Assembly: GCA_026874595.1 (NCBI GenBank)
Contig: CM049306.1
Coordinates: forward strand, 17,009,019-17,073,018
Reading direction: 5' to 3'
Length of the DNA: 64,000 nucleotides
Source of the DNA: Sipunculus nudus
Lineage: Eukaryota > Annelida > Sipuncula > Golfingiida > Sipunculidae
Positions 19,769 to 62,211 of this stretch are shown piece after piece (position 1 is the stretch's first letter; each line of letters opens with the position of its first letter). The position numbers were made by a program, and so were the translations under genes. The notes beneath the pieces are model-generated. The model saw nothing but the letters and a program-made list of their open reading frames with translations, had not been told where the DNA came from and made no database searches.

Positions 19769-20043
19769 TCATTTCTTATGCATAATGCGCACTTCAGGAA
19801 ATTTAGCATCCAGATCTACTAATTCTGGCACAGTCACATTCCCACCAGTCACAACTACCACTACGTTCTTCCCCTTTACATCAGGAACCTTCCCATGGAG
19901 CAAAGCAGCAAAGGCTGCAGCTCCAGATGGTTCTACCACCAAGCCTCGACGGAAAAGTTCACGAACAGCTCTTACAATTTCTTCATCTGACACCAGTAGC
20001 ACGCCCTCAGCATAGGTCTGGCAGTGCTTGTAGCAGTTGGCTC
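19769..20043 (-). CDS. SRR-like: PLP-enzyme last exon
   Basis: TTTCAATTCAG precedes it; stop TGA at 19771-19769. It encodes ANCYKHCQTYAEGVLLVSDE, EPSGAAAFAALL and VVVVVTGGNV to FPEVRIMHKK. Confidence 0.95.
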
Positions 20044-23000
20044 CTGAATTGAAACAGACACAATGTTAAATTTAATTCATACTAGATAGAAACTACCATT
20101 TATTTAATCATAAAAATTCAACTGATCCCTGAATAAAACATGGTAAGCTAATCTAAAGAAGCTAAGTTCTTACATAAATGAGCTATAATTACATTCTCTT
20201 TCTCTCTGCCAAATTTTCTGGGAATAATTCTTAAAGGGGCCCAATCACCTATAAAGCATGTTAAATTGACACAAAAAAATAACTGCTTCCCTTTGAAATA
20301 AATTTGTATCTGCCAAAATATTGCCCTGTAACAGTTTGCTAAATCCTGTAAACAAGTGTTAAAAACAGTGGACCAGGTGCGAATACATGTGTCAACATAA
20401 ATACAGCAAGCGCATATTCCAGGCCACATGTGTCAATCAAGAGATTCCCTGACTTGACACATAAAGAGTTATTCATTTTCCCTTTGGTTGAAACATCGCG
20501 TATTGTGGGTCATAATCGAACCCCTGGTCATGAGGCCTTGTTATGGAAAACAGACACACGTGGACTGTGTTTACCAACATGCAGAATAATAACAAGTTGT
20601 TAAATGCTGTCGTTGAGGTACTGAGACTTGTGTGCTGGGATGGTTTGGCTGGAAACTTTTGTATAAAGCAAAACTGACCTGATAGTGTGAAACAATAGGC
20701 ATTATATTGCTCCTGATTATGTCCCTTTACATAAGAAACTAGTAGAAGTGACATTTTTGATATAATACAGCTGTAGGCAAGTACATAATTACACCTTTTT
20801 ATGTTAAAGAGACTGAAAGGATTCACCAAGTATTAATGACTTTGCCAAGTAGTGCCGAAAATTAGACTTTTTATTTAAATCTTCCAATTTGTGAAATTGG
20901 CCTGTGTCATAAGATCCTATCTTCACCTTGTTCTGATAAATGTGGGTAAAAGGATATACCTTATTGTTGTTTAGAAGTATAAAAGTCACTGATATTACAT
21001 TTGAACTAAGAATCAGGTATCACAAAAAAATATTTTACCCGCATAAGGAGGTGAAAGTCCAGCAGCAATGGACTTTGGGAACATACTGATTGGTCGGCCT
21101 TGTTTAAAGCTCTCAAACATGGTGCGTGCTGTAAAATACAACAGATTTTTATCATTCATATCATTTGTGGATGTTAATAATTACATCCAAAAATAGCAGA
21201 ATTACAATCCCATATACCATATGGGTAGTCAGTTTGTTTTATACATCCATATTAAGACTGAAATGAATGAGAACACCCCTGAACAACAGAGTAATTATGC
21301 TCATTCTGTAAACAGGGTTGGATGTCCATCTGTACTACAGTGACTACAGTTGTAATTTTTGACAGATGTCCTCTGTCAGACACCTGCATAGTTAGATACA
21401 GATGAAAGAGCCCAAAGTACAGTGGGTTCCTTTTTTATTTGTATGCATTGTTTTATATAAATCATACATGATACCCTAAATGTGACAAAATTATAAAGGG
21501 CTGCTCAGGTCAACTGTCCAGCTATAATACCTCGTTCAGGTTCAACAGCATACACTCTACAGTCATGGCAGCCTGACAGTTTGATGGCTGTGGAGCTACC
21601 AGCCACAAGTCCTCCACCTCCACAGCAGATCAGTACTACATCAGGATGAGGAAGGTCCTCCAGGATCTCCAGGGCACAGCTGTCAGTGTGATAAAACATG
21701 GATATAATGTATCTCCAGAGCACAGCTGTCAGTGTCAGTGTGATAAAACATGGATATAATATATCTCCAGAGCACAGCTATCAGTGTGATAAAACATGGA
21801 TATAATATATCTCCAGGGCACAGCTGTCAGTGTGATAAAACATGGATATAATGTATCTCCAGGGCACAGCTGTCAGTGTGATAAAACATGGATTTAATAT
21901 ACCTGCAGGACACAGCTGTCAGTGTGATAAAACATGGATATAATGTATCTTCAGGGCACAGCTGCCAGTTTGATAAAACATGGATATAATATATCTCCAG
22001 GACACAGCTGCCAGTGTCAGTGTGATAAAACATGGATATAATATATCTCCAGGGCACAGCTGTTAGTGTGATAAAACATGGATATAATATATCTCCAGGG
22101 CACAGCTGTCAGTGTCAGTGTAATAAAACATGGATATAATATATCTCCAGGGCACAGCTGTCAGTGTGATAAAACATGGATATAATATATCTCCAGGGCA
22201 CAGCTGTCAGAGTGATAAAACATGGATATAATATATCTCCAGGGCACAGCTGTCAGTGTGATAAAACATGGATATAATATATCTCCAGGGCACAGCTGTC
22301 AGAGTGATAAAACATGGATATAATATATCTCCAGGGCACAGCTGTCAGTGTCAGTGTGATAAAACATGGATATAATATATCTCCAGGGCACAGCTGTCAG
22401 TGTGATAAAACATGGATATAATATATCTCCCGGGTACAGCTGTCAGTGTCAGTGTCAGTTGAATTGTATTATGTAAAAAACTAAACTCTTTAAATCCTCT
22501 CTTGTAATCTTCTCTGCTTAAAAGGGGGCACCATAATTTCTTTCAGTATGACAATTACTTTACGACATTTTATTAAAAACAAAAAAATGTGATGAAGAAA
22601 ACATAAATTTTAGCAAAACTAACTTCTCCTAAAGCCTTGTCTATATCTCCAGAGCACAGCTATCAGTGTGATAAAACATGGATAAAATGTATCTCCGGAG
22701 CACAGCTGTCAGTGTCAGTATGATAAAACATGGATATAATGTATCTCCACGGCACAGCTGTCAGTGTGATAAAACATGGATTTAATATACCTGCAGGACA
22801 CAGCTGTCAGTGTGATAAAACATGGATAAAATGTATATTCAGGGCACAGCTGCCAGTGTGATAAAACATGGATATAATATATCTCCAGGACACAGCTGCA
22901 AGTGTCAGTGTGATAAAACATGGATATAATATATCTCCAGGGCACAGCTGTCAGTGTGATAAAACATGGATTTAATATATCTCCAGGGCACAGCTGTCAG

Positions 23001-26000
23001 TGTCAGTGTAATAAAACATGGATATAATATATCTCCAGGGCACAGCTGTCAAAGTGATAAAACATGGATATAATATATCTCCAGGGCACAGCAGTCAGTG
23101 TGATAAAACATGGATATAATATATCTCCAGGGCACAGCTGTCAGAGTGATAAAACATGGATATAATATATCTCCAGGGCACATCTGTCAGTGTCAGTGTG
23201 ATAAAACATGGATATAATATATCTCCAGGGCACAGCTGTCAGTGTGATAAAACATGGATACAATATATCTCCCGGGCACAGCTGTCAGTGTCAGTGTCAG
23301 TTGAATTGTATTATGTAAAAAACTAAACTCTTTAAATCCTCTCTTGTAATCTTCTCTGCTTCAAAGGGGGCACCATAATTTCTTTCAGTATGACAATTAC
23401 TTTACGACATTTTATTAAAAACAAAAAAATGTGATGAAGAAAACATAAATTTTAGCAAAATTAACTTCTCCTAAAGCCTTGTAATCTGTGAGTTAGTCAG
23501 TACCTATCACTATATTTCAATCACAAACATCCATGTCACCATCGAGATAACTGTACTCATCACACAGAGTGTCTGGTAAAGCAGCCCAGAACACATGCTT
23601 GTCACAGATAGGCAACTTGTCTTTCTACCAGGGGCAAAAGATTATAACAAGTACTCACCTGGCATGTCCAGCGATTATTTTTATATCGTCAAATGGATGA
23701 AGGTAGACCATCTTCTCCTGTTTAACATATTGGTCAACTTTTCTCTGCAATTCATTGGTTGGCATCTTCTCCACATCAACTCCAAAGTTCTGAATAAAAA
23801 GAAAACTAATTTATGGACACAGGTGTGATTATGGAGAATTCCTTTCCCCTAACACCTCTGTGTGAACAACTCTCTGACTGAAATTATTTGTGAGGTGGAC
23901 AAATTATAAAATTAATACACTGCTTTGACTGTCCTTTAAAGGAATAATTGAGTTTTTTTTAAATACAGCTGCAAAATGAAAATTCCTTGGACATAACTGA
24001 CCTATTATAATTTCAAGGGGCTTATTCCAATGTGTAACACTTATTAACCAAAGATATTCCCTTGAACCTTTTATAACAAGCAAATTTGTGGAATTTATGT
24101 CCCCTGCTTTTGGATCTTTTTTTTTTTGTTTGGACCAACAGACAGACAGACAAAAGCCAGACACTCCAAAACCAATCCCAACCAAGGTAAGCATGAGAGC
24201 AAAAACTGACCCAAATCTGAATGAAAAAGGATAATATTTAGGAAAGTTATGGCACAGAAACGAAAACCTGATGGACAGACAGACAGAGTGACAGATACAC
24301 AGACAGAAGCCAGACACTCAAGACCAATCCCAACCAAGGTAAGCAAGAGAGCAATTACTGCCCATAATTAGAATGAAATCAGATAATATTAAGGAAAGTT
24401 ATCGCTGGGAACTGAATACCTGACAGAGAGACAAAGTAACAAACAGACAGACAGAAGCTAGGCACTCCAAAACTAATCCCAAACAAGGTTTGCATGAGAG
24501 CAACCACTGACCAAAATACAAAAGAAATCGGATAATAGTTAGGATAGTTATTGCACCGAAAAGTAAAACCTGACAGACAGACAAAAGTTACAGAAAGAAA
24601 GACAGACAGCTAGACAGACACGCAGACAGAAGCCAGACACTCAAAAGCCTATCCAAACCAAGGTAAGCATGAGAGCAATCACTGACCCTCATTTGAATGA
24701 AATAAGATAATATTTAGGAAAGTTATCGCAAGGAAATGAAAACCTGACAGATGGACAGACAAAGTGACAGACAGACAGAAGCCAGACACTCCAAAACAAA
24801 TTCCAACCAAGGTATGCATGAGAGCAATCACTGACCCAAATCTGAATGAAATTGGATAATATTTAGGATAGTTATCAAACAGAAACAAAAACCTGACAGG
24901 CAGACAGACAAAAGTGACAGACAGACAGAGGCCAGACACTCCAAAACCAATCCCAACCAAGGTATGCATGAGAGCAGTCATTGACCAAAATTTAAATGAT
25001 ATCAGATAATATTTAGGAATGTTATCACATGGAAATGAAAACCTGATGGACAGACATAGTGACACATAGACAAAAGCCAGACACTCCAAAACCAATCCCA
25101 ACCAAGGTAAGCATGACAGCTTTCACTGACCCAAATTTGAAAGAAATTGGATAATATTTAGGAAAGTTATCACACAGAAATGAAAACCTGACAGGCGAAC
25201 AGACAAAGTGACAGACAGACAGACAGACAGACAGAAGCCAGACAAAAAAAAACCCAAATTAATGTCCCCTGAAACTGCAGTGAGACTGGAGATCTGTACC
25301 CGGTTGAATGTTGCTCTGTTTTGTATATGCTTATTCTGTTATGAATAAGACTGGAGGTCTTTACCAGGATGAGTGTTGCCCTGTTTTGTATATGCTTATT
25401 TTGTTATGAATGAGACCGGAGGTCTGTACCAGGATGAGTGTTGCCCTGTTTTGTATATGCTTATTCTGTTATGAATGAGACTGGAGGTCTGTACTGGGAT
25501 GAGTGTTGCCCAGTTTTGTATATGCTTATTCTGTTATGAATGAGACTGGAGGTCTGTACCAGGATGAGTGTTGCCCTGTTTTGTATATGCTTATTCTGTT
25601 ATGAATGAGACCCAGAGGTCTGTACCGGGATGAGTGTTGCCCTGTTTTGTATATGCTTATCTGTTATGAATGAGACTGCAGGTCTTTACCAGGATGAGTG
25701 TTGCCCTGTTTTGTATATGCTTATTCTGTTATGAATGAGACCCAGAGGTCTGTACCAGGATGAGTGTTGCCCTGTTTTGTATAGGCTTATTCTGTTATGA
25801 ATGAGACTGAAGGTCTGTACGGGGATGAGTGTTGCCCTGTTTTGTATATGCTTATTCTGTTATGAATGGGACTGTAGGTCTTTACCAGGATGAGTGTTGC
25901 CCTGTTTTGTATATGCTTATTCTGTTATGAATGAGACCGGAGGTCTGTACCGGGATGAGTGTTGCCCTGTTTTGTATATGCTTATTCTGTTATGAATGAG

Positions 26001-29000
26001 ACCAGAGGTCTGTACCAGGATGAGTGTTGCCCTGTTTTGTATATGCTTATCTGTTATGAATGAGACTGCAGGTCTTTACCAGGATGAGTGTTGCCCTGTT
26101 TTGTATATGCTTATTCTGTTATGAATGAGACAGAGAGGTCTGTACCAGGATGAGTGTTGCCCTGTTTTGTATAGGCTTATTCTGTTATGAATGAGACTGA
26201 AGGTCTGTACGGGGATGAGTGATGCCCTGTTTTGTATATGCTTATTCTGTTATGAATGGGACTGGAGGTCTTTACCAGGATGAGTGTTGCCCTGTTTTGT
26301 ATATGCTTATTCTGTTATGAATGAGACCGGAGGTCTGTACCGGGATGAGTGTTGCCCTTTTTTGTATATGCTTATTCTGTTATGAATGAGACCAGAGGTC
26401 TGTACCGGGATGAGTGTTGCCCTGTTTTGTATATGCTTATTCTGTTATGAATGAGACTGGAGGTCTGTACCAGGATGATGGTTGCCCTGTTTTGTATATG
26501 CTTATTCTGTTATGAATGAGACTGAAAGTCTGTACCAGGATGAGTGTTGCCCTGTTTTGTATATGCTTATTCTGTTATGAATGAGACCAAGAGGTCTGTA
26601 CCGGGATGAGTGTTGCCCTGTTTTGTATATGCTTATCTGTTATGAATGAGACCGGAGGTCTTTACCAGGATGAGTGTTGCCCTGTTTTGTATATGCTTAT
26701 TCTGTTATGAACGAGACCAGAGGTCTGTACCGGGATGAGTGTTGCCCTGTTTTGTATATGCTTATCTGTTATGAACGAGACCAGAGGTCTGTACCGGGAT
26801 GAGTGTTGCCCTGTTTTGTATATGCTTATTCTGTTATGAACGAGACCAGAGGACTGTACCGGGATGAGTGTTGCCCTGTTTTGTATATGCTTATTCCGTT
26901 ATGAATGAGACCAGAGGTCTGTACCAGGATGAGTGTTGCCCTGTTTTGTATAGGCTTATTCTGTTATGAATGAGACTGAAGGTCTGTGCTGGGATGAGTG
27001 TTGCCCTGTTTTGTATATGCTTATTCTGTTATGAACGAGACCAGAGGTCTGTACCAGGATGAGTGTTGCCCTGTTTTGTATAGGCTTATTCTGTTATGAA
27101 CGAGACCAGAGGTCTGTACCAGGATGAGTGTTGCCCTGTTTTGTATATGCTTATTCTGTTATGAATGAGACTGGAGGTCTGTACTGGGATGAGTGTTGCC
27201 CAGTTTTGTATATGCTTATTCTGTTATGAATGAGACTGGAGGTCTGTACCAGGATGATGGTTGCCCTGTTTTGTATATGCTTATTCTGTTATGAATGAGA
27301 CTGAAAGTCTGTACCGGGATGAGTGTTGCCCTGTTTTGTATATGCTTATCTGTTATGAATGAGACTGCAGGTCTTTACCAGGATGAGTGTTGCCCTGTTT
27401 TGTATATGCTTATTCTGTTATGAATGAGACAGAGAGGTCTGTACCAGGATGAGTGTTGCCCTGTTTTGTATAGGCTTATTCTGTTATGAATGAGACTGAA
27501 GGTCTGTACGGGGATGAGTGTTGCCCAGTTTTGTATATGCTTATTCTGTTATGAATGAGACTGGAGGTCTGTACCAGGATGATGGTTGCCCTGTTTTGTA
27601 TATGCTTATTCTGTTATGAATGAGACTGAAAGTCTGTACCGGGATGAGTGTTGCCCTGTTTTGTATATGCTTATCTGTTATGAACGAGACCAGAGGTCTG
27701 TACCGGGATGAGTGTTGCCCTGTTTTGTATATGCTTATTCTGTTATGAACGAGACCAGAGGTCTGTACCGGGATGAGTGTTGCCCTGTTTTGTATATGCT
27801 TATTTTGTTATGAATGAGACCAGAGGTCTGTACCAGGATGAGTGTTGCCCTGTTTTGTATATGCTTATTCTGTTATGAATGAGACTGGAGGTCTTTACCA
27901 GGATGAGTGTTGCCCTGTTTTGTATAGGCTTATTCTGTTATGAATGAGACTGGAGGTCTTTACCAGGATGAGTGTTGCCCTGTTTTGTATAGGCTTATTC
28001 TGTTATGAATGAGACTGGAGGTCTGTACCGGGATGAGTGTTGCCCTGTTTTGTATATGCTTATTCTGTTATGAATGAGACTGAGGTCTGTACGGGGATGA
28101 GTGTTGCCCTGTTTTGTATATGCTTATTCTGTTATGAACGAGACCAGAGGTCTGTACCGGGATGAGTGTTGCCCTGTTTTGTATATGCTTATTCTGTTAT
28201 GAATGAGACCAGAGGTCTGTACCGGGATGAGTGTTGCCCTGTTTTGTATATGCTTATTCTGTTATGAATGAGACCAGAGGTCTGTACCAGGATGAGTGTT
28301 GCCCTGTTTTGTATATGCTTATTCTGTTATGAATGAGACCAGAGGTCTGTACCAGGATGAGTGTTGCCCTGTTTTGTATATGCTTATTCTGTTATGAATG
28401 AGACTGGAGGTCTGTACAAGGATGATGGTTGCCCTGTTTTGTATATGCTTATTCTGTTATGAATGAGACTGAAAGTCTGTACCAGGATGAGTGTTGCCCT
28501 GTTTTGTATATGCTTATTCTGTTATGAATGAGACCCAGAGGTCTGTACCGGGATGAGTGTTGCCCTGTTTTGTATATGCTTATCTGTTATGAATGAGACT
28601 GCAGGTCTTTACCAGGATTAGTGTTGCCCTGTTTTGTATATGCTTATTCTGTTATGAATGAGACCCAGAGGTCTGTACCAGGATGAGTGTTGCCCTGTTT
28701 TGTATAGGCTTATTCTGTTATGAATGAGACTGAAGGTCTGTACGGGGATGAGTGTTGCCCTGTTTTGTATATGCTTATTCTGTAATGAATGGGACTGTAG
28801 GTCTTTACCAGGATGAGTGTTGCCCTGTTTTGTATATGCTTATTCTGTTATGAATGAGACCGGAGGTCTGTACCGGGATGAGTGTTGCCCTGTTTTGTAT
28901 ATGCTTATTCTGTTATGAATGAGACCAGAGGTCTGTACCAGGATGAGTGTTGCCCTGTTTTGTATATGCTTATCTGTTATGAATGAGACTGCAGGTCTTT

Positions 29001-32000
29001 ACCAGGATGAGTGTTGCCCTGTTTTGTATATGCTTATTCTGTTATGAATGAGACACAGAGGTCTGTACCAGGATGAGTGTTGCCCTGTTTTGTATAGGCT
29101 TATTCTGTTATGAATGAGACTGAAGGTCTGTACGGGGATGAGTGATGCCCTGTTTTGTATATGCTTATTCTGTTATGAATGGGACTGGAGGTCTTTACCA
29201 GGATGAGTGTTGCCCTGTTTTGTATATGCTTATTCTGTTATGAATGAGACCGGAGGTCTGTACCGGGATGAGTGTTGCCCTGTTTTGTATATGCTTATTC
29301 TGTTATGAATGAGACCAGAGGTCTGTACCGGGATGAGTGTTGCCCTGTTTTGTATATGCTTATTCTGTTATGAATGAGACGTGAGGTCTGTACCAGGATG
29401 ATGGTTGCCCTGTTTTGTATATGCTTATTCTGTTATGAATGAGACTGAAAGTCTGTACCAGGATGAGTGTTGCCCTGTTTTGTATATGCTTATTCTGTTA
29501 TGAATGAGACCAAGAGGTCTGTACCGGGATGAGTGTTGCCCTGTTTTGTATATGCTTATCTGTTATGAATGAGACCGGAGGTCTTTACCAGGATGAGTGT
29601 TGCCCTGTTTTGTATATGCTTATTCTGTTATGAACGAGACCAGAGGTCTGTACCGGGATGAGTGTTGCCCTGTTTTGTATATGCTTATCTGTTATGAACG
29701 AGACCAGAGGTCTGTACCGGGATGAGTGTTGCCCTGTTTTGTATATGCTTATTCTGTTATGAACCAGACCAGAGGACTGTACCGGGATGAGTGTTGCCCT
29801 GTTTTGTATATGCTTATTCCGTTATGAATGAGACCAGAGGTCTGTACCAGGATGAGTGTTGCCCTGTTTTGTATAGGCTTATTCTGTTATGAATGAGACT
29901 GAAGGTCTGTGCTGGGATGAGTGTTGCCCTGTTTTGTATATGCTTATTCTGTTATGAACGAGACCAGAGTTCTGTACCAGGATGAGTGTTGCCCTGTTTT
30001 GTATAGGCTTATTCTGTTATGAACGAGACCAGAGGTCTGTACCAGGATGAGTGTTGCCCTGTTTTGTATAGGCTTATTCTGTTATGAATGAGACTGGAGG
30101 TCTGTACTGGGATGAGTGTTGCCCAGTTTTGTATATGCTTATTCTGTTATGAATGAGACTGGAGGTCTGTACCAGGATGATGGTTGCCCTGTTTTGTATA
30201 TGCTTATTCTGTTATGAATGAGACTGAAAGTCTGTACCGGGATGAGTGTTGCCCTGTTTTGTATATGCTTATCTGTTATGAATGAGACTGCAGGTCTTTA
30301 CCAGGATGAGTGTTGCCCTGTGTATATGCTTATTCTGTTATGAACGAGACCAGAGGTCTGTACCGGGATGAGTGTTGCCCTGTTTTGTATATGCTTATCT
30401 GTTATGAACGAGACCAGAGGTCTGTACCGGGATGAGTGTTGCCCTGTTTTGTATATGCTTATTCTGTTATGAACGAGACCAGAGGTCTGTACCGGGATGA
30501 GTGTTGCCCTGTTTTGTATATGCTTATTTTGTTATGAATGAGACCAGAGGTCTGTACCAGGATGAGTGTTGCCCTGTTTTGTATAGGCTTATTCTGTTAT
30601 GAATGAGACTGAAGGTCTGTGCTGGGATGAGTGTTGCCCTGTTTTGTATATGCTTATTCTGTTATGAACGAGACCAGAGGTCTGAACCAGGATGAGTGTT
30701 GCCCTGTTTTGTATAGGCTTATTCTGTTATGAACGAGACCAGAGGTCTGTACCAGGATGAGTGTTGCCCTGTTTTGTATAGGCTTATTCTGTTATGAATG
30801 AGACTGGAGGTCTGTACTGGGATGAGTGTTGCCCTGTTTTGTATATGCTTATTCTGTTATGAACGAGACCAGAGGTCTGTACTGGGATGAGTGTTGCCCT
30901 GTTTTGTATATGCTTATTCTGTTATGAATGAGACTGCAGGTCTTTACCAGGATGAGTGTTGCCCTGTTTTGTATATGCTTATCTGTTATGAATGAGACTG
31001 AAGGTCTGTGCTGGGATGAGTGTTGCCCTGTTTTGTATAGGCTTATTCTGTTATGAATGAGACTGGAGGTCTGTACCGGGATGAGTGTTGCCCTATTTTG
31101 TATAGGCTTATTCTGTTATGAATGGGACTGGAGATCTGTACTGGAATGAGTGTTGCTCTATTTTGTATAGGCTTATTCTGTTATGAATGAGACTGGAGGT
31201 CTGTACCGGGATGAGTGTTGCCCTATTTTGTATAGGCTTATTCTGTTATGAATGGGACTGGAGATCTGTACCTGGATGAGTGCTGCTCTGTTTGCTGGTG
31301 CCGTGTCAGGCATTAACAACTTGGCTTTAAGGTTCATTTGTTTACACATCTCAGCAAATGCCCGACCATAGTTGCCTGCAGACATTGAGATGAGCTTACG
31401 ACCCTCTGTTCCACAGTCTTCAGGTAGACAGTGGAGCTGATTTACAATGCCTCGCACTTTAAAGGAGCCTGCAGAAATATAAATGAACAGTAATCCTGTG
31501 AATAATCTGTATGAATTAAAAATACCATATAGAGTCCTTGTCAGGAAAAATAAGGGAAACATAATTTGACTATGTGTTGTTTAAATGAGGACTCTTTGTA
31601 TTTTGCTTTATAGTTATCAGAATTTTAAAATTTGTAAATGCATTCCTTAAAGCACCTGAGGACATCTCTGATTGTAAATTACTATTTTGTTATTTCTGTA
31701 CAGTTTTATTTTTCAAAACAAATTGATTGGTGTCTACTTTGTGAAAAATTGGCAAAACTCAAGTGTTAAAACTGACAAGCAAACTTTAAAGTTTGGACTA
31801 TCATCCATCCAAAGTTTTCTTTGATTTCTACCTATAGTGAAGAAAATAACTAAGTCAGGAGACTGACTCCAAAATTCCATATTTAATATTGAACAAGATA
31901 AGAGACAATGGGTAACCCTTGAAGCTAATTTTCAACATCAGTTATGATAAAGGACCCTTAACATAGATATTAGATCCATGGTAGGTGAAAATACTGAGCA

Positions 32001-34492
32001 CTGAAGTTAATTTGTTATAATTTCACCTTATCATGCAGTAAACACTGATCCACAGAAATGTTATTATGAGACAGACAAACTGAATAACAGTTGTGATATT
32101 TTTTTTCAATTCAGAGGAACTTCTTCTTTACAATACAAATCATATTTATCATTCCTGTACCGATACCTAGACATGAGGGTCAATTAATATTTTCATTTAA
32201 CTTCAGTTATAATTCAAGATGTATAATGAAACTGCAATTCCAATTCAATACAATGTTTTGGAAAAATATCAATTAAATTTAATTGACAATTTAAATTGAA
32301 GATTCACCCTTCACCAGAGAGTGTGCCAGAATACAAAATTAAGTTCATGAACTTAACAGCACTTAAGCTGCTCAACAGATTCCTTTATAATGACGCCTCT
32401 TAGATTCATCTCTTATTTTAGTCAAACACTATATGGTTTATCTACAAAATAAAACTACTCAGAGACGAGAAAATCTTTTAAGCAATAACTGGAAAAAAGC
32501 GAGTGCATATGTGTCTAATTCAGCTCAATTCCTTTGAGTTTGGAGACTTCAATTCCGTTAAATTCCATTTTATTTTATTTTTTTTAATTTCTTTTAATGA
32601 ATTTCAATTCTAATTTATGTAATATACCCTTAATTTCCAATCTGATGAGAATACAATTTAGATTCGGCCTTAGGTCTGCTGGTGCTATTCAAGAAATGTT
32701 AGCCTGTGTATGTCAATTCAAAATATTAAATTCTACATATATATATTTATAAACGTTTATGTATTAGGTTTATAGGGGTAAATTTCTTTTAAAGATCTGG
32801 TTAAAAACATACTTATTAAACATTAAATAGGAATATATCAACATGTATATTTTGTATAAATTTTCTATAAACAGTGAATTCTCTCTGCATCTAGGTACTA
32901 ATTTCAATACTTTTTCAGAATAAAACTGAAATCACGTTTTGGAACACCAGTATACTCTTTTAATCTACACATCATCTTTTCTGTGTCCTTTTAACATCCT
33001 ACTTCAATTATACAGTATACACTGAAAATAAGACAAGCACTCTAACAGTATCCCAGCTACAAAAACATTTGTGTTGATGCAGATGTAAGTGTTCAGTGGA
33101 AGGCCGATTACATCAATCATTTGGACAGAAGGAAGTAAATCTACTTATAGCTGGTAAATACATTACATACTCTTAATGCTGTTTCACTGGTCCACTACTT
33201 AAACTGTACACACACAAAGCAAAACACAGGTCATGTTATATGTATTAACCTTTACAAGTGACCCCTTAATTGCGTTCAAAAGACATGAGCCTTAAAGGTA
33301 ACAACAGGCATAATTTCAGAAGTGAACTCTGACCTATCAAGAAAATCAATACTGAAAACTCAGATCCTGGTGCAAGAAGAAAAATAATTTTATATGGTTC
33401 ACCCTATTCTGGAACTGTTACATCAACCAAAAGAAACAGTTCGGTGTTTTATAAGAAACTTTTGTTTATATAATTAGCAGGGCTACCCTTTTGACCTGCA
33501 TATATCACATTCTGGTTAAACATGTAAATCAAGATGTCTGAACAAGATGATCTCTTTCACTGTATAAACCAGATCATACTTGGGTGATTGCTCCCACACA
33601 CACATTTAGCCTGTACATAAACATTTGATGCTCTAGATTATACTTGTCTGCATTATCACTGACAGACCAGACATCTGTTGACATATAAGCATGGGACTGA
33701 TAAGACTACACACCAGCATGGCTCTCATACACAAAATCAACTGTACTTATCTTCAAAGAGTCAGGTTATGTCTGACCCACTCAGGAGCCTTTAAAAGGGG
33801 AATTTGTATCCAAAATGATTGAATGCACATAAATAATCTAACAGCGAGGTGTTTTTTGTCCATTTAATGGATCATTTATAAATTGGAATGGCATTTTTTG
33901 TTAGTTTTTCTCCCTAATATACTGAACTTAAATCTATATATCTATATATATATATATATATTATATATATATATTTATATATATCAGAATACGAATGACA
34001 TCACATTTTGAATGAACTCTTTTTTTAGCAGAGCCACCTGTCTATTAAATCCACCATTGAGTGAACCAAGACCATCGCCATTGATTATGACTGAACTGTC
34101 TAATGCGACCACCTGTGAATTAAGACCACTTTGGCCAGTCCCACAGTGGTCTTCCCACAAGTAGCACCGTATATATATACATATATATAAATGAAGTTTC
34201 ATTAACTGAACTCAGCCTTGCCCCTCTGCTAAAATGTTAAGCATTTATTAAATACATGTACCAATATATCTATTTTCTGGCAGAGAGTTTCTGCTTACCT
34301 GTATTCTGCATGTTTTCCAGCTTCAGATACAGGTTTATAGATGGGTCTATTTTATCAAACATGCCGTTCACCTTTAGCAGTGGTGTCCATAAAGTGTAAG
34401 GACTTGCATCCACCACATTTTTAGCAGCCTTAATGTCATCCAGAGTTAACAAAGGATCATCAGACTTATACATCTTGCCTGATAGGTGTGAA
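19769..34492 (-). CDS. SRR-like: Serine racemase-family PLP enzyme, probably threonine/serine dehydratase (6 coding exons)
   Basis: Exons in order: 34492-34299 (ATG at 34473), 31468-31272, 23789-23659, 21679-21531, 21128-21039 and 20043-19769. They join in phase to 338 residues, the normal length for serine racemase (~340). Visible motifs: NTGSFKVRG with the PLP lysine (residue 62), SAGNYG (88-93) in the substrate loop, HPFDD (155-159), GGGG (188-191) for the PLP phosphate, EPSGAA (285-290) and TGGN with Thr313 at the PLP ring. The residue matching human Ser84, needed for racemisation, is Ala89, and the HPFDD loop is as in threonine dehydratases. Of the human metal ligands (E210, A214, D216), Glu214 and Ala218 are kept but Thr220 replaces Asp. 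The likely reaction is deamination of L-Thr/L-Ser to 2-oxoacid plus ammonia, in the cytosol. Introns 2 and 3 contain the splice-site arrays. Confidence 0.93.
20044..21038 (-). other. PLP-enzyme intron 5
   Basis: No further exon is supported. Open frames at 20,148-20,989 on the minus strand do not resemble proteins. Confidence 0.6.
21039..21128 (-). CDS. SRR-like: PLP-enzyme exon 5
   Basis: TTTTACAG precedes it; GCGG|GTAAAA ends it. It encodes RTMFESFKQGRPISMFPKSI then AAGLSPPYA, aligning with human SRR KLKGKLMPNLYPPETIADGV. The phases on both sides fit. Confidence 0.93.
21129..21530 (-). other. PLP-enzyme intron 4
   Basis: Plain AT-rich intron; no repeat or gene seen. Confidence 0.6.
21531..21679 (-). 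CDS. SRR-like: PLP-enzyme exon 4 (tetraglycine loop)
   Basis: CACTGACAG precedes it; GAACGAG|GTATTA ends it. It encodes CALEILEDL, CGGGGLVAG and RVYAVEPER. Its first ~11 bases and acceptor are the seed of the 46-bp array in intron 3. Confidence 0.95.
21668..23299 (-). repeat. 46-bp tandem array carrying 31 copies of a 3' splice site
   Basis: On the gene strand each unit reads CACTGACAG|CTGTGCCCTGG then AGATATATTATATCCATG and TTTTAT. The real intron 3/exon 4 junction at 21,679/21,680 is the outermost copy. I count 31 copies (17 in 21,675-22,440, 14 in 22,650-23,290). Some have an extra CAGTGT (52 bp). A unique 185-bp stretch starting TTGAATTGTATT occurs at 22,459 and again at 23,301, so a block of about 0.84 kb was duplicated whole. 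AG is kept in nearly every copy. Confidence 0.95.
23300..23658 (-). other. Rest of PLP-enzyme intron 3
   Basis: The duplicated unique stretch (23,301-23,482) and single-copy intron up to the exon 3 donor. Confidence 0.7.
23659..23789 (-). CDS. SRR-like: PLP-enzyme exon 3
   Basis: TTTTTATTCAG precedes it; GCCAG|GTGAGT ends it; 43 codons plus two bases. It encodes NFGVDVEKMPTNELQRKV to VYLHPFDDIKIIAGHA, aligning with the VHPNQEPAVIAGQG region of human SRR. It lies between the two splice-site arrays. Confidence 0.93.
24070..25258 (-). repeat. Family C tandem array (about 7 units of ~155 bp)
   Basis: Units contain AAGCCAGACACTCCAAAACC, AATCCCAACCAAGGTAAGCA, TGAGAGCAATCACTGACCC, GATAATATTTAGGAAAGTTA and a (GACA)n tract. 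A 40-bp end block near 24,070-24,105 (GACATAAATTCCACAAATTT reversed) is shared with 11,870. It sits in intron 2 of the PLP-enzyme gene, next to the 65-bp array. Confidence 0.85.
25273..31294 (-). repeat. 65-bp tandem array carrying ~90 copies of a 5' splice site
   Basis: On the gene strand each unit reads AACAGGGCAACACTCATCC, then CG|GTACAGACC, TCCAGTCTCATTCATAACAG and AATAAGCATATAC. The real exon 2/intron 2 junction (CATCCAG|GTACAG, 31,272/31,271) is the outermost copy. Units are 65 bp, with 63-bp variants lacking TT. About 6.0 kb gives roughly 90-95 units. GT is kept in most units; a minor variant (GTCTGTGCTGGG on the + strand) has lost it. A stretch from about 25,609 to 27,350 recurs at about 28,530 to 30,270 with the same order of variants, an offset of about 2.92 kb (45 units). 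Confidence 0.95.
31272..31468 (-). CDS. SRR-like: PLP-enzyme exon 2 (PLP lysine, SAGN loop)
   Basis: TTTCTGCAG precedes it; CATCCAG|GTACAG ends it. It encodes GSFKVRGIVNQL (Lys62) through SAGNYGRAF to MPDTAPANRAALIQ. Its last ~20 bases and the donor site are the seed of the 65-bp array that follows in intron 2. Confidence 0.95.
31469..34298 (-). other. PLP-enzyme intron 1
   Basis: AT-rich, no exon supported. Contains a (TA)n tract at about 33,938-33,983. No array derived from exon edges was seen here. Confidence 0.6.
33938..33983. repeat. (TA)n microsatellite
   Basis: Interrupted TA repeat. Confidence 0.85.
34299..34492 (-). CDS. SRR-like: PLP-enzyme exon 1 (start codon)
   Basis: TTTGTAG at its upstream edge and ACAG|GTAAGC at its end. 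The first 19 bases are probably 5' UTR; translation starts at ATG 34473-34471 (MYKSDDPLLTLDDIKAAKNV). The frame is open upstream to the splice site, so an earlier start in an undetected exon is possible, but the length matches the family from this Met. Residues 1-58 and the first base of Gly59. Confidence 0.9.
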
Positions 34493-45452: not shown

Positions 45453-46915
45453 ATGAATACCTCCGTTGTTAACGTTATTGCGCAATCACATGAACTGCAG
45501 AATGAGGGGTCGCTCACTGGCATGCAAATTTTGAATGATGAACCGTGTGATCATTGTGATCGTGTGATCACTGTGATGTTGGCGACTTTACCGTTGAGGA
45601 TTTACAGAGGCCTGTCTCGGACATTATTGTTAAAATTCTAGATGATATCAACACAGATCCAAAAGATGCTGTGGTTCACAAAGTCCTTACGTACTCACAA
45701 AACGATGTTTCATTGTTAGAGAACATCAGATTTGAACTTTATAAAAAAGCTAAAATGAAACCAAACTTTCCTGGAGGGTCTCTGATTAAACGACAAAGGC
45801 CAAAGTCTCAAATGGAACAAAGTCTCGGTGAAAAGCTGGCCAAAGACTGCTAAATACTGGCATCATTCATCTGTGATGCTCCAGCAGAAGAGCTGCCCAG
45901 TATTTTCACTACGAGCAAATATAGCGGCAGTGTTATAATTGAAACCTGCGGTAAACCCTCTGATCACCCTTGTGTTCCTTTTCGACAGTTGTAGCAGCCC
46001 GGCTGATACAGTAGCTCTTCACGCTGTGAAACTGGAAGAAATTCAGTCAGAGTGTGCAAATATTAAATAGTTGTTCTCTGATATTGTGTCTGAATTAAAA
46101 CAAGAAATCACAGATAACAATGGTGAAATAAGTCGATGTAATGAAGAAATTGAGAGATTACGATTTTCTATTCAAAGCTTGAATGACGTGAAGGATGACG
46201 TTGCTAAACAATCAGTTGAATTGTCTCAGTTAAGTGTAGAGATGGTAGACATGAAAAATGATATTAAAATGTGCTTTGATGAACTTGGCATGATGCGCTC
46301 TACCTTGGAAATTTCTGTGAGAGGTGTGAAGTACGATTTAGCAAAACATTCCAGTTTAATCAATAATGTGAAGAGACGTGCAGAAGAAATGGCAATTGAG
46401 GCTGTAACTGATCGTTTGAAGATTGGAAATGACATCAGGTTGTCTTATGGAAGGCTCAGGTCTGCAGAAAATGACATCCAAGACTGTGCCCATAAGGCAG
46501 AATCCGCAATAACAACACTGAAATTTTTGCGTGCAAAAATTGCGGAAATAGAATCACACTTTTCTCACCAGAAAGCAGACCGTATGCGGATGCCCTTCGA
46601 CATGGACGCCTGATATCAGGACGGCAGTCTGATACTAGATCGAGTGTGCAGCAGTCAAATAGTCATTTGAATTCATCTGATACTGCGCAGAATGGGATGG
46701 CAACTTCACGGGCACCTCTACACACGGATGACACTTTCCACACACGCACGTATAACAATAGTAATACTGATACAATAGAAGGCTCGTTCACTGGTATCTC
46801 GCTGAGACGGAGCGGGGACCGAGACAGACATATAGTGGACTATTACGTCGGTAAAATAGAAGACTGTGTTTCATATGATGATTTGATATCGTACATCAAA
46901 AGGAGAAATGTATAG
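45453..46915 (+). pseudogene. LINE ORF1 remnant
   Basis: Open pieces at 45,453-45,641, 45,671-45,853, 46,071-46,613 and 46,646-46,915. The third is a 180-codon coiled coil (SELKQEITDNNGEISRCNEE and on, heptad-rich). The last ends DYYVGKIEDCVSYDDLISYI, resembling the start of an RNA-binding domain. Frames change between pieces, so no intact protein is made. Confidence 0.65.
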
Positions 46916-47029
46916 AGGTGATAGATTTGCGATAGTGATAGTGCAAACTGCACTATACCGCCCCGAAAATTAAAAAAAGTACCTTAAACCAAAATGTTTA
47001 ACCTTAGCTTAACTTAAACATGGCGTGAT

Positions 47030-49409
47030 TAGATTCGCACGAATAAAATGGTTTGAAGCAGGGAGACGGCGTGGCTGGGAGTGAAGTGAATATCGTTCGC
47101 ATAAACTAGCGAAATGTGAATTCGGACGTGCAATGGGGCATATTCATAAAGTTGCCGAGGAAGAGCTCTTTCAAGAGCTGCACGATAACTCGGAACTTCA
47201 CTCCAGGTCATATTTCGTATGATCCACAAGATACTGCAGAAGGGTGGGCTGACTATTTCGAAAAATATATATACCCCTAAACAGCAAAATCATTTTGATG
47301 GGGGCTGTTATCACAACGTGGTCGAGCAAGTTGGCAACATGAAAAAGGTATTTTGTTGTAGCAAGAAGCTCCGAGATGGCGTTATAACACAACTAAAAGT
47401 GCGCAATGCGGTGAAGGCCCTTAAAAGAGGGAAATCCGGCGGTCTTGATCGTGTACCAAATGAGCAACTCATTTTTGGTGGGAATGCATTGAGGGATCAT
47501 CTTTGTCACCTTTTCAATTTAATGTTGTACACGGAAGAAATTCCAGTTAGCTTGAAGCGCGGCCTTATTGTAACGATACCAAAAGAGAAAGGAAACAGTA
47601 CAAAACCGGATGCACACAGAAATTTCGCTCCTGTCTGTTATTTATAAAGTTTTCGAAAAAATATTACTTGAACGTTTCTTGAAATTTATAAAGGTGAATC
47701 AGATCCAGTTTCCCGACAGTCTACAATTTGCTTACCAAAAACAAATGTCCTCATTACATGCTTCTTATATAGTTCAAGAAGTTATTTCATATTTTAGAGA
47801 AAAGGGATCTAAATATGTCTGTGCTGCCTCGATAATTAGAGAGCTTTTTATTCAGTATGGTACGATGGCCTTCAATATAAGATTTTCAATTTAGGAATTA
47901 AGGGTAAATTTTGGAGGCTTATTGTTTCTTCCTATACCAATGTTCAGAGCGCGGTTCAGGTGGATAGCTATAGAAGTATAGATGGTTCAATGTTAAACAG
48001 TGTGTACGGCAGGGTGGGGTCCTATCACCCTGGTGGTTTTGGTGTACAAAAATGATCTCTTAGAAGAATTACGATATTTTAAATTTGGAGCCTGCATTGC
48101 CGATACTTATATGGGTTCTCCAGTACACAGGCTGACGATGTTGCGCTACTCTCGCCTACACCCCATGCAGGGTCTTCAAAATATGATCAATATATGCTAT
48201 GCTCACAGTTCAAATGGCGTTTAAACTTCAACCACAAAAAATCAGTTATTCTGACGTTTGGGGAGAGTGTTTTAACGTTTAATAAATATTATTCAAAGAG
48301 AGCGTGGTATTTAGGGCAGGACTTGATTCGACAGGCAAGGAGTCACGTGCATCTTGGTGTACATTTGCAGACTGACTTCACGCACAAAGAATCTGTTGCT
48401 AACGCGTGTCATAGGGTGAAAGGATCTTTTCTGTCATTGGCCGGTTCAGCCAAAGCTTTAAAGCCACTTTCGTGTATGTTGCTATACAAACAGATTCTAA
48501 TTCCTGGTGCTTTATTTGGCTGCGAGCTATGGAATAATTTAAATAAGACTGAACTCTTGATATTGGAAAGATTTCATAGGTTTTGTGTGAAGAATTCTCA
48601 GGACTTCAAGCCTACTGTTAGAACTAATATTGCTTTATCAATGGTAGGTATACCCTGTTTAGAATCTTTCATTGATAAAGCAAAGCTAATTTTTTTGGTA
48701 ACTTCTAAAAATTAATCATTTCAAATCCTTGCAAGAAAATCGTGTTATACCGTTTCATTAACTTCTTGTTGAATAAAAGACTTAAAATATACGGATTTAC
48801 CGCCGACATGTATCGACTGTTAAACAAATATGAACTGCTTGATACCATTTATATCTGCTTAATCGGTTGTGAACCCTTTCCAGACAGCCTGGACGAATGG
48901 AGATGTAAAGTAATTGAAAGTATTGTGAACTATGAGTATACCATGCATGAATTTAGCGTTTCGCGAGATTTGACCTTATATAATTTTTTCGAGGTTCCCG
49001 GTGATCGCTTCTCCTCGTCTGCTCTGTGGGCAACATAAGTCAGATACCTGGTTCATTGCCTAGGTTTAGGTACTTAGCGCAGCTACTTGTGAATCTGGAA
49101 AATTTTAACATGCAACATCAGTTCCTTTGTCATCGTTGCGGAAAATTATATTTCAATGCAGTAGTACATATAGTTGAATCCTGTACTGCTACAATTAACC
49201 AGAGAGAACATATGTGGAACTTTATTTGTGATAAATTACCCGTTCAGGTTGCCCTGTCGGACATTGAACTCGTAAGAGCCTTGATAAAAGCGGACATTGT
49301 ATATGGATTAAACGAATCTTCCGAACTCGAACACTATTCAGCCGCTTTACTAAATGAGGTCTCTCTTTTCTTTAAAGAGTCTGAGAAGATTATTAATGAA
49401 CTATCTTGA
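47030..49409 (+). pseudogene. LINE ORF2 remnant (reverse transcriptase)
   Basis: RT palm pieces: AVKALKRGKSGGLDRVPNEQ (the KSGGPDGIPNE block), GLIVTIPKEKGNS, and KVFEKILLERFLKF in another frame. The catalytic ADD appears as TQADDVALLSPTP near 48,130, where most LINEs have YADD. The thumb and C-terminal parts are at 48,194-49,409, ending in a Cys/His cluster (CHRCG, then HIVESC). Spread over several frames. Confidence 0.8.
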
Positions 49410-60353: not shown

Positions 60354-62211
60354 CTGCAAAGAAAGTGGATGTAACGTGGTCTTCTGTCTTTGAATACATT
60401 TGGTTGATTTATTGTCAAATAATAAACCATGGGTATCTAAGAAATGCATCACTAAATAAATGCTAATATAATATGTATCATGGATCTACTTTTAAAAATA
60501 ACTGTCATAAAAAATGACAATGTGATGATGGGAACGGTTTTTTATTTCTATATGATCCCATTGAGAACATCCCGAAAGCGAAATCGACTTAACAGCATGC
60601 CTACTGCATGGCTGCATGTGTACTAGTCCAGAATTGGACGCTGACGGCCTCACAAACAACCCCAAACCACGGACATCAGCGTTCAGTGCTCAAGGGGAGG
60701 GTGTGGGTGGGGTTATTTGTGAGGCAGTCAGCGTCCATTGCTAAGGACCGGGGCGTCGGGGGGGGGGTATTTTTAAGACCATCAGCGTCCAGTGCTTAAG
60801 GGCTGGTGCGTGGTTGAGGTTATTTGTTACGCCGTCAGCGTCCAGTGCTGAGGACCACGCCGTGGATAGGGTTATTTATGAGACCATCAGCGTCCAGAGC
60901 TTAAGGACCAGTGCGTGAATGGGGTTATTTGTGAGACCATCAGCATCCAGTACTGAGGACCGGGCGTGGATGGGTTATTTGTGCGATCATCAGCGTCCAG
61001 AGCTTAAAGAGCTGTGCGTGGGTTGGGTTATTTGAGAGGCCGTCAGCGTCTAATGCTGAGGACCGGGGAGTGGTTGGGGTTATTTGTGAGACCATCAGCG
61101 TCCAGAGCTTAAGGGCTGGTGCGTGGGTGATGTTATTTGTAAGGCCGTCGGCGTCCAGTGCTGAGGACCGGGGCGTGGATGGGGTTATTTGTGTAACCAT
61201 CAGCGTCTAGAGCTTAAGGACCGGTGCGTGGATGGGGTTATTTGTGAGACCATCAGCGTCCAGTGCCTAGGACCGGGCGTGGATGGGTTAAGGTGATTTT
61301 CCATAAGTGCGTAGTGCGTATCCGTAGTCCGTATGCGTAGTCCGTATCCGCAAAGTTCGTTTTCCAGAAGTACGTATGCGTAGTCCGTACTCCTTGTTGA
61401 TAGGTGCTCGATGGCTGAAGATTTTCTTTCTTGGCAGGCCATTCCACCATATATTTAGTGTACATTTCCAAATATTATCAACAAAAATTTTATATATATA
61501 AATTTTTTATATATATTTATATAATATTTATATTTTCAAAAAGGATCTTAATTATTATTATTTTACACGCGGTTCTGATGTTAACGGCTCAAGCATTTGG
61601 AAAACACGTACGTGTATATGTTAAAGAGAGGACAACAAAATTCAACCAAATGCCAATTTGTTTGGTATACGAAAGACTAATATCAGACATGACATTTATA
61701 CCAGTGGAAATAGAGGTGCATATACAGCACGGCCTGAATGGGAAAACGGTGTGTTAAACCTGAAATTGACAAGGTGATTGGTATGCGTAGTGCGCAAAAA
61801 TCGCTCCCGGCAGCGTGCGGATACGGACTACGCATACGGACTACGCATTCGGACTACGCACGCAAATGAATGGAAACGGCCCAGTTAAAAAGTCTACAAA
61901 GCGATTTTTGCGGACTACGCATGCGGACTACGCATACGGACTACGGATACGGACTACGCACTTATGGAAAACCACCTTTATTTGTGCGATCATCAGTGTC
62001 CAGAGCTTACGGACCGGGGCGTTGGTGGGATTGTTTGAGAGGCTGTCAGCGTCAAGCTCTTTAAAAGATATGTACCTGAGTAGGGATAAATGCAGGACAC
62101 TCCTTCTGTAGCCGTCTGACGGTGTGGAAGACGTCAACCTCGTGGTTCCTGTCTAGCCGTCGACATACCTCGTGAAGCGCCATAAGAAGTCCACACAGGA
62201 CCCGCCCATCA
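60249..62211 (-). CDS. Receptor-type protein tyrosine phosphatase, C-terminal end (2 exons)
   Basis: Exons 62211-62076 and 60353-60249 join in phase (Gln-Glu) to give 79 residues and a TAA stop. DGRVLCGLLMALHEVCRRLD, EVDVFHTVRRLQ, CPAFIPTQEQYEWL and TATKEYI align with the C-terminal third of a tyrosine phosphatase domain (human PTPRA D2: SAGAGRTGTFCAL, LDVFQTVKSLR, TLEQYEFCY). The position of the P-loop arginine (GxGR[ST]G) is Leu here (DGRVLCG), so this is a catalytically dead D2-type domain. The catalytic cysteine position, the active D1 and the ectodomain lie beyond the window. The subfamily cannot be fixed. Confidence 0.85.
60630..62060 (-). repeat. ~55-bp tandem array in phosphatase intron, split by a MITE
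   Basis: Units alternate CATCAGCGTCCAGAGCTTAA and CGTCAGCGTCCAGTGCTGAG, each followed by GGACCGG..CGTGGATGGGG and TTATTTGTGAG. About a dozen copies before the MITE at 61,291 and one or two after it (61,978-62,055). Unlike the PLP-enzyme arrays, the unit does not contain the exon junction. Confidence 0.88.
61291..61977. mobile_element. MITE with TTA target duplication (Harbinger-like)
   Basis: Long inverted ends start AGGTGATTTTCCATAAGTGC and (reversed) AGGTGGTTTTCCATAAGTGC and run about 60 bp as GTAGTCCGTATGC repeats. TTA lies on both sides (61,288-61,290 and 61,978-61,980). 687 bp. The AT-rich centre has a 108-codon open frame with no transposase motif. The ends resemble those of the MITE at 57,998 (GGTG.TTTTCCAT). 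Confidence 0.85.
62076..62211 (-). CDS. Phosphatase penultimate exon (P-loop end)
   Basis: TTTATTAG precedes it and ACTCAG|GTACAT ends it; one base plus 45 codons. It begins just after the expected HCS of the signature motif. Confidence 0.87.

What the first reader, a model, noticed from the sequence alone, without database searches (positions are those of the whole stretch)
25273..31294. Tandem array built from a 5' splice site: about 90 copies of the exon 2 donor
The 65-bp unit filling most of intron 2 contains the last ~20 coding bases of exon 2 and its donor (CACTCATCC.G|GTACAG). The real junction is the array's outermost copy on the gene's 5' side. About 90 decoy donors follow. Each unit also has AAAACAG 16 bases before its GT, so it could in principle act as a tiny exon. 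One variant class has lost GT, so site loss can be followed along the array.
Basis: partly seen in the sequence, partly recalled or inferred. Interest (0 to 1): 0.88.

Follow-up and report, generated by a model that had tools for sequence, protein, structure and literature searches.

The report
Intron array copied from splice junction
Most of one intron in this animal gene is a string of about ninety copies of the exon's own splice site, a mirror-image array sits at a later exon of the same gene, and similar arrays turned up at several other exons sampled in this genome, giving a natural test of how cells pick the right splice site; the copies themselves look passive.

Summary
On the minus strand, intron 2 of an intact six-exon PLP-enzyme gene (L-threonine ammonia-lyase/serine-racemase-like) begins with 93 copies of a 65-bp unit. 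The outermost copy is the exon 2 donor; units carry about 20 coding bases. A search of the 1.43-Gb genome found the unit only here.

It is not peculiar to this gene. Junction-straddling tandem copies sit at 6 of 75 sampled myosin exons, in six of 18 gene clusters. Three more lie within 90 kb of the window, one on the acceptor of an SNRNP200-like exon.

A decoy role is not supported by sequence. GT is no better conserved than the rest of the unit, 76 of 92 decoys score below the real site, and use of any decoy donor would give a premature stop.

Best reading: duplications straddling an exon end are tolerated because the exon-side copy keeps working, then expand. Human ABCA7 has a donor-containing VNTR of this kind; the apparent frequency here is the new part. 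No RNA was available.

The parts
34299..34473 (-). Exon 1 coding part (ATG to CAG|GTAAGC), 175 nt
   Evidence: homology by tblastn; coordinates and donor
31272..31468 (-). Exon 2 (SFKVRG...ANRAALIQ); its end seeded the array
25281..31293 (-). 65-bp tandem array in intron 2: 93 copies, the first being the real exon 2 donor (last ~20 coding bases inside the unit), 92 decoys
   Evidence: found only here in the genome
23659..23789 (-). Exon 3, lying between the two arrays
21665..23291 (-). 46/52-bp tandem array in intron 3: 31 copies including the real exon 4 acceptor, TGACAG|CTGTGCCCTGGAGAT; interrupted by a duplicated piece of unique flank
   Evidence: found only here in the genome
21531..21679 (-). 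Exon 4 (phase 2 start, SCALEILEDLP...); its start seeded the second array
21039..21128 (-). Exon 5
19769..20043 (-). Exon 6 with stop codon

Best explanation
Shown: the 65-bp unit is the exon 2/intron 2 junction copied in tandem, and a second array in the same gene is the intron 3/exon 4 junction copied in tandem. Inferred: a short tandem duplication first straddled the exon end. It was harmless because the copy joined to the exon still defines the exon, while every further copy is simply intron. Unequal exchange or slippage then enlarged it in multi-unit blocks. Splicing keeps using the exon-side copy, probably through exon definition, and the decoys are passive passengers with at most a small cost in mis-splicing. 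The same process has acted at other exons of this genome.
For: Real junction and array unit differ at 6 of 64 positions. Exon bases inside the unit code for residues aligned with 17 homologues, so the exon is the source. Two exon-like states (A9, T32) occur only in the real junction, unit 2 and the far-edge copy, as expected if the array grew between them. A 24-unit block recurs with 8 differences in 1560 bases. In the intron 3 array part of the unique flank was duplicated with the units. Unit found only at this locus. GT not better kept than the rest. Mirror and sister cases at 6 of 75 myosin exons, in six different gene clusters of 18, and at an SNRNP200-like exon.
Against: No RNA data, so passivity is inferred. 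16 of 92 decoys (CTG|GTAAAG) score above the real donor on a recalled human-like matrix, so splicing must reject better-looking sites. No outgroup shows the state before the array. Tolerance alone does not explain why unique arrays are denser at exon ends than in 264 kb of surrounding DNA.
Confidence: 0.74

Rival explanations
1. Regulatory decoy array: the copies bind U1/U2 machinery, slow or divert splicing and tune gene output by intron retention or nonsense-mediated decay.
For: Decoys keep GT (88 of 92) and one class of 16 outscores the real donor. In human ABCA7 a donor-containing VNTR is reported to alter splicing with length (PMC5954066 passages). Every decoy donor leads to a premature stop (92 of 92).
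Against: Donor letters vary as much as the rest of the unit, and sites as strong as the real one are rarer per kb in the array than in the gene's other introns (2.7 against 4.4). Sister arrays in other genes share no sequence-level design.
Confidence: 0.16
2. Dispersed satellite or transposon piece that landed at the junction and took over the splice site.
For: The region is rich in dispersed tandem elements; many of the arrays in 264 kb match elsewhere in it.
Against: Both units were found only at this locus; the exon bases are ancestral coding sequence.
Confidence: 0.02
3. Assembly artefact in copy number.
For: Long near-identical blocks (24 units, 99.5%) are the kind that assemblers misjudge.
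Against: 53 distinct unit sequences with ordered variants and distinct edge copies. An artefact could change the number of copies but not create a junction-derived unit or the short cases at other exons.
Confidence: 0.05
4. Mini-exon array: the 16-nt stretches between AAAACAG and GT are used as tiny exons.
For: AAAACAG is intact in 83 of 92 decoys and GT in 88 of 92.
Against: 16 nt shifts the frame; no pyrimidine-rich tract precedes AAAACAG (sequence).
Confidence: 0.03

Closest known systems
Human ABCA7 intron 18 VNTR (PMC5954066; passages read)
   Same: Tandem array starting at an exon's donor, GT inside each unit, 25-bp unit, 12 to about 427 copies; the exon-side copy is the normal donor.
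   Different: There the unit begins at GT and the reported text names no coding bases; splicing effects were measured. Here units include about 20 coding bases, a mirror acceptor array sits in the same gene, and effects are unknown.
Tandem repeats at exon-intron boundaries of human genes in segmental duplications (PMC2812944; passages read)
   Same: Tandem repeats overlapping exon ends that can change splicing.
   Different: Recently duplicated paralogues, repeats largely exonic and variable between paralogues; here a single-copy gene with the repeat on the intron side.
Intron gain by tandem duplication across an intron-exon boundary (potato RdRp; PMC4974935, abstract and introduction read)
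   Same: A tandem duplication crossing a splice junction.
   Different: There it made a new intron; here it enlarged an existing one.
Decoy exons in detained introns such as OGT (recalled; papers seen only in a search listing)
   Same: Unused-looking splice sites within an intron.
   Different: Known cases are single conserved decoy exons, not arrays; no functional evidence here.

Membership tests
ABCA7-type donor VNTR | Array begins at an exon's donor and units contain that GT | tested here: met
   Outermost copy is the exon 2 donor; GT in 88 of 92 decoys
ABCA7-type donor VNTR | Copy number varies between individuals | not testable with these tools
   One assembly only
ABCA7-type donor VNTR | Array length changes splicing | not testable with these tools
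   No RNA data held
Rogers-type intron gain by AGGT exon duplication | Duplicated segment is exonic and creates the intron | tested here: not met
   The unit is about one third exon and two thirds intron and expands an intron that has its own further sequence
Dispersed satellite DNA | Unit present at other loci | tested here: not met
   93 of 93 listed matches (65-bp unit) and 14 of 14 (46-bp unit) lie in the two arrays
Recursive splice sites | AG directly followed by GT in the decoys | tested here: not met
   0 of 92 decoys have AG before the donor G; only the real junction does
Decoy exons / detained introns | Decoy sites engage splicing factors and hold the intron back | not testable with these tools
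   No RNA or binding data; conservation test gave no support

The most novel reading that the evidence does not exclude
In this genome exon-intron junctions are hot spots for founding tandem arrays, so that several percent of exons (6 of 75 sampled, 95% interval 4-16%) carry tandem copies of their own splice site with coding bases, apparently more on the donor side (5) than the acceptor side (1). It would be a recurrent class of junction-born minisatellites and a genome-wide natural experiment in splice-site competition.
Probability: 0.4. Interest if true: 0.8.

Novelty: new variant of a known kind. Interest (0 to 1): 0.6.

Why it matters
How the splicing machinery ignores many good look-alike sites is a standing question. 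Here one gene offers 92 near-identical decoy donors before exon 3 and 30 acceptor copies after it, in known order, where each miscall would leave a 65- or 46-nt step in the message and a premature stop. If the class is as common as the sample suggests, one long-read RNA run on this species would give many such tests. It would also suggest that exon ends can found minisatellites, of which the ABCA7 repeat in human disease may be one example.

Tried and rejected
Conservation test for decoy function: negative. Dispersed-satellite origin: not supported. Paralogue without the array as an outgroup: none found; of 7 protein matches, 5 are this gene's exons, one is a distant intron-free match on C135 (31% identity) and one a weak match on C4. 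Local enrichment exactly at the junction against random placement close to exons: not significant, P=0.17. Pfam support for the exons beside the 44-bp and 52-bp arrays: none, so these two rest on open frame and splice signals only. A second gene family (PF00225) and an organism check (PF00115) were asked for, but the search machine did not answer. The literature searches listed no report that I recognised of arrays carrying exon junctions across many genes of one genome; that is no proof of absence.

Rows handled before counts; 32 merged arrays (period 20-200, score 110 or more); 14 were without a far match and above the entropy limit; two pieces of one 44-bp array were counted as one, giving 13, of which 5 straddle exon ends; 11 remain (3 straddling) after leaving out the two in the window's gene. 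Myosin set: rows with score under 110 were not counted (L061, L064, the 14-bp row of L074, the 16-bp row of L087, L090); the 35-bp row of L087 is the same array as its 61-bp row. The myosin search scored 65 of 198 first-look candidates and listed 75 matches, all of which were fetched. The end of the L072 exon was placed from recalled myosin sequence. The 28 SNRNP200-like exons were picked by eye from ranked open frames, only one of them was tested with Pfam, and that gene came to notice through its array, so it is not part of the rate.

Full report
What is there. The window lies on contig C1 of an unnamed 1.43-Gb genome, an animal's to judge by its closest proteins. On the minus strand runs a complete gene of six coding exons, 34473 to 19769. 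It encodes a 338-aa PLP-dependent enzyme with a full-length PALP domain (E=2.9e-69). Its nearest named relatives are animal L-serine/L-threonine ammonia-lyases and serine-racemase-like proteins, 62% identical at best among the 120 listed (Branchiostoma). Intron 2 is 7482 bp and intron 3 is 1979 bp.

The donor array. From the exon 2 junction (31272|31271) to 25281 there are 93 copies of a 65-bp unit. The first copy is the real junction and differs from the interior consensus at 6 of 64 positions. The coding tail it carries (ANRAALIQ) aligns with 17 homologues, and the exon 2/exon 3 join leaves no insertion. So the exon came first and the array is the copy. All 93 listed genome matches of the unit lie in this array.

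How it grew. A block of 24 units recurs 45 units away with 8 differences in 1560 bases; mean pairwise identity of decoys is 92.6%, with 53 distinct units among 93. Two states shared with the real exon copy, A9 and T32, are found only in the real junction, unit 2 and the far-edge copy. Homogenisation of the interior by block duplication explains this simply.

Are the decoys kept as donors? No sign of it. GT is kept in 88 of 92 decoys and four have GC. But 35 of 65 columns are invariant, the donor window carries slightly more alternative letters per column than the rest (0.78 against 0.63), and 46 of 65 circular shifts of the column pair vary as little as GT. On a recalled human-like matrix the real donor CAG|GTACAG scores 4.7, 57 decoys (CCG or CTG before GTACAG) score 2.5-2.7, 16 (CTG|GTAAAG) score 6.0 and the other 19 score lower than the real site. 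Sites as strong as the real one are rarer here than in the gene's other introns, 2.7 against 4.4 per kb. Use of any of the 92 decoy donors would end the protein after 156 (91 cases) or 181 (1 case) residues, and none of 29 decoy acceptors in intron 3 reads through to the normal end.

The mirror array. Intron 3 ends in 31 copies, the real one included, of a 46/52-bp unit with TGACAG|CTGTGCCCTGGAGAT, the exon 4 acceptor and its first 15 coding bases. Of 29 copies tabulated, 28 keep AG and 18 keep 14 exon bases exactly. About 190 bp of unique flank was duplicated together with part of the array. All 14 listed genome matches lie here.

Not one gene's oddity. In 264 kb around the window, 13 arrays of period 20-200 have no match elsewhere in that region. 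Besides the two above, three abut what look like exon ends: a 76-bp array on the acceptor of an SNRNP200-like exon (Pfam SNRNP200_wHTH, E=8.8e-10), and 44-bp and 52-bp arrays on donors of open frames without Pfam support. As a sample not chosen by arrays, the 75 myosin-head matches listed by the genome search (it scored 65 of 198 candidates) were all fetched with 160-bp flanks. Six of 75 have tandem copies straddling an exon end, in six different clusters of 18. Donor side: L063 (36 bp x5), L072 (29 bp x3.5), L074 (83 bp x1.9), L087 (61/35 bp, three copies), L088 (35 bp x2, only three exon bases). Acceptor side: L110 (86 bp x1.9). Three further arrays lie within 160 bp without touching the junction (two at L096, one at L098). 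In the SNRNP200-like gene 1 of 28 recognised exons has one; that gene was noticed through its array.

How strong is the excess? Against the density of unique arrays in the 264 kb, 0.23-0.31 straddling arrays were expected at 150 exon ends (unit taken as 50 bp) and 6 were seen, P about 1e-6 or less; without L088, P=1.9e-5. In the next 100 bp, 3 were seen against 0.45-0.62 expected, P=0.01-0.03. Against random placement close to exons the junction share is not significant (6 of 9, P=0.17). So arrays are concentrated at and near exon ends; whether the junction itself is the focus is open. The background is a single region, and up to ten matches come from one cluster.

Mechanism. A duplication straddling an exon end leaves exon and splice site intact on the exon side and adds only intron on the other. 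It can therefore be neutral where a duplication inside the exon is not, and can then expand. This explains the outermost-copy rule on both sides and the lack of GT selection. It does not by itself explain why arrays are denser near exons; a higher duplication rate in transcribed, exon-like DNA, or loss of intron-interior arrays by transposon turnover, are untested possibilities.

What is known. The human ABCA7 VNTR starts with the GT of exon 18 and is reported to affect splicing (PMC5954066, passages). Tandem repeats at exon-intron boundaries are reported for human segmental-duplication genes (PMC2812944, passages). A boundary-crossing duplication made an intron in potato (PMC4974935, abstract and introduction). 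The present case is a variant of that known kind, with coding bases in the unit, both junction types in one gene, and recurrence across genes.

Noticed in passing
C1:16,989,249-16,992,659 (19.8 to 16.4 kb left of the window; L035-L036): 44-bp array of about 60 copies in two pieces, beginning at a donor-like CACGGCAGTCACAAG|GTGAGTC at the end of an open frame. No Pfam hit for the frame.
   Followed up: partly
C1:16,974,254-16,974,500 (34.8 kb left of the window; L034): 52-bp array of 4.7 copies beginning at a donor-like CAACCCTACCCCCAG|GTAAAAC at the end of an open frame. No Pfam hit.
   Followed up: partly
C1:17,159,465-17,159,727 (L026): 76-bp acceptor array of 3.5 copies in an SNRNP200-like helicase gene, each copy with TTACAG|CCTACACATACCTG and more coding bases.
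   Followed up: yes
22450-23500: About 190 bp of unique intron 3 sequence lies twice, once inside the 46-bp array, so part of the flank was duplicated with the units.
   Followed up: partly
21937-21891 and 22825-22779: Two copies of the 46-bp unit have changed to CCTGCAG|GTATAT, so they carry an acceptor and a donor-like site 13 nt apart.
   Followed up: no
24137-25235: A 150-bp tandem array with GACAGACAG stretches fills the rest of intron 2 next to the 65-bp array; it has matches elsewhere in the 264 kb.
   Followed up: no
46071-49409 (+): Open frames that look by eye like pieces of a non-LTR retrotransposon; three of them gave no Pfam hit at E 1e-3.
   Followed up: no
61310-61960: 13-bp repeats (CGTAGTCCGTATC and its reverse complement) on either side of an AT-rich stretch, like the ends of a mobile element.
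   Followed up: no
G000:C135:19207-20004 (L013): Intron-free relative of the PALP gene, 31% identical in a 519-aa open frame on a small contig; possibly bacterial contamination or a symbiont.
   Followed up: no
C2:44,837,703-44,856,291: Cluster of ten myosin-head matches with several near-equivalent exons, as in muscle myosin genes with alternative exons.
   Followed up: no
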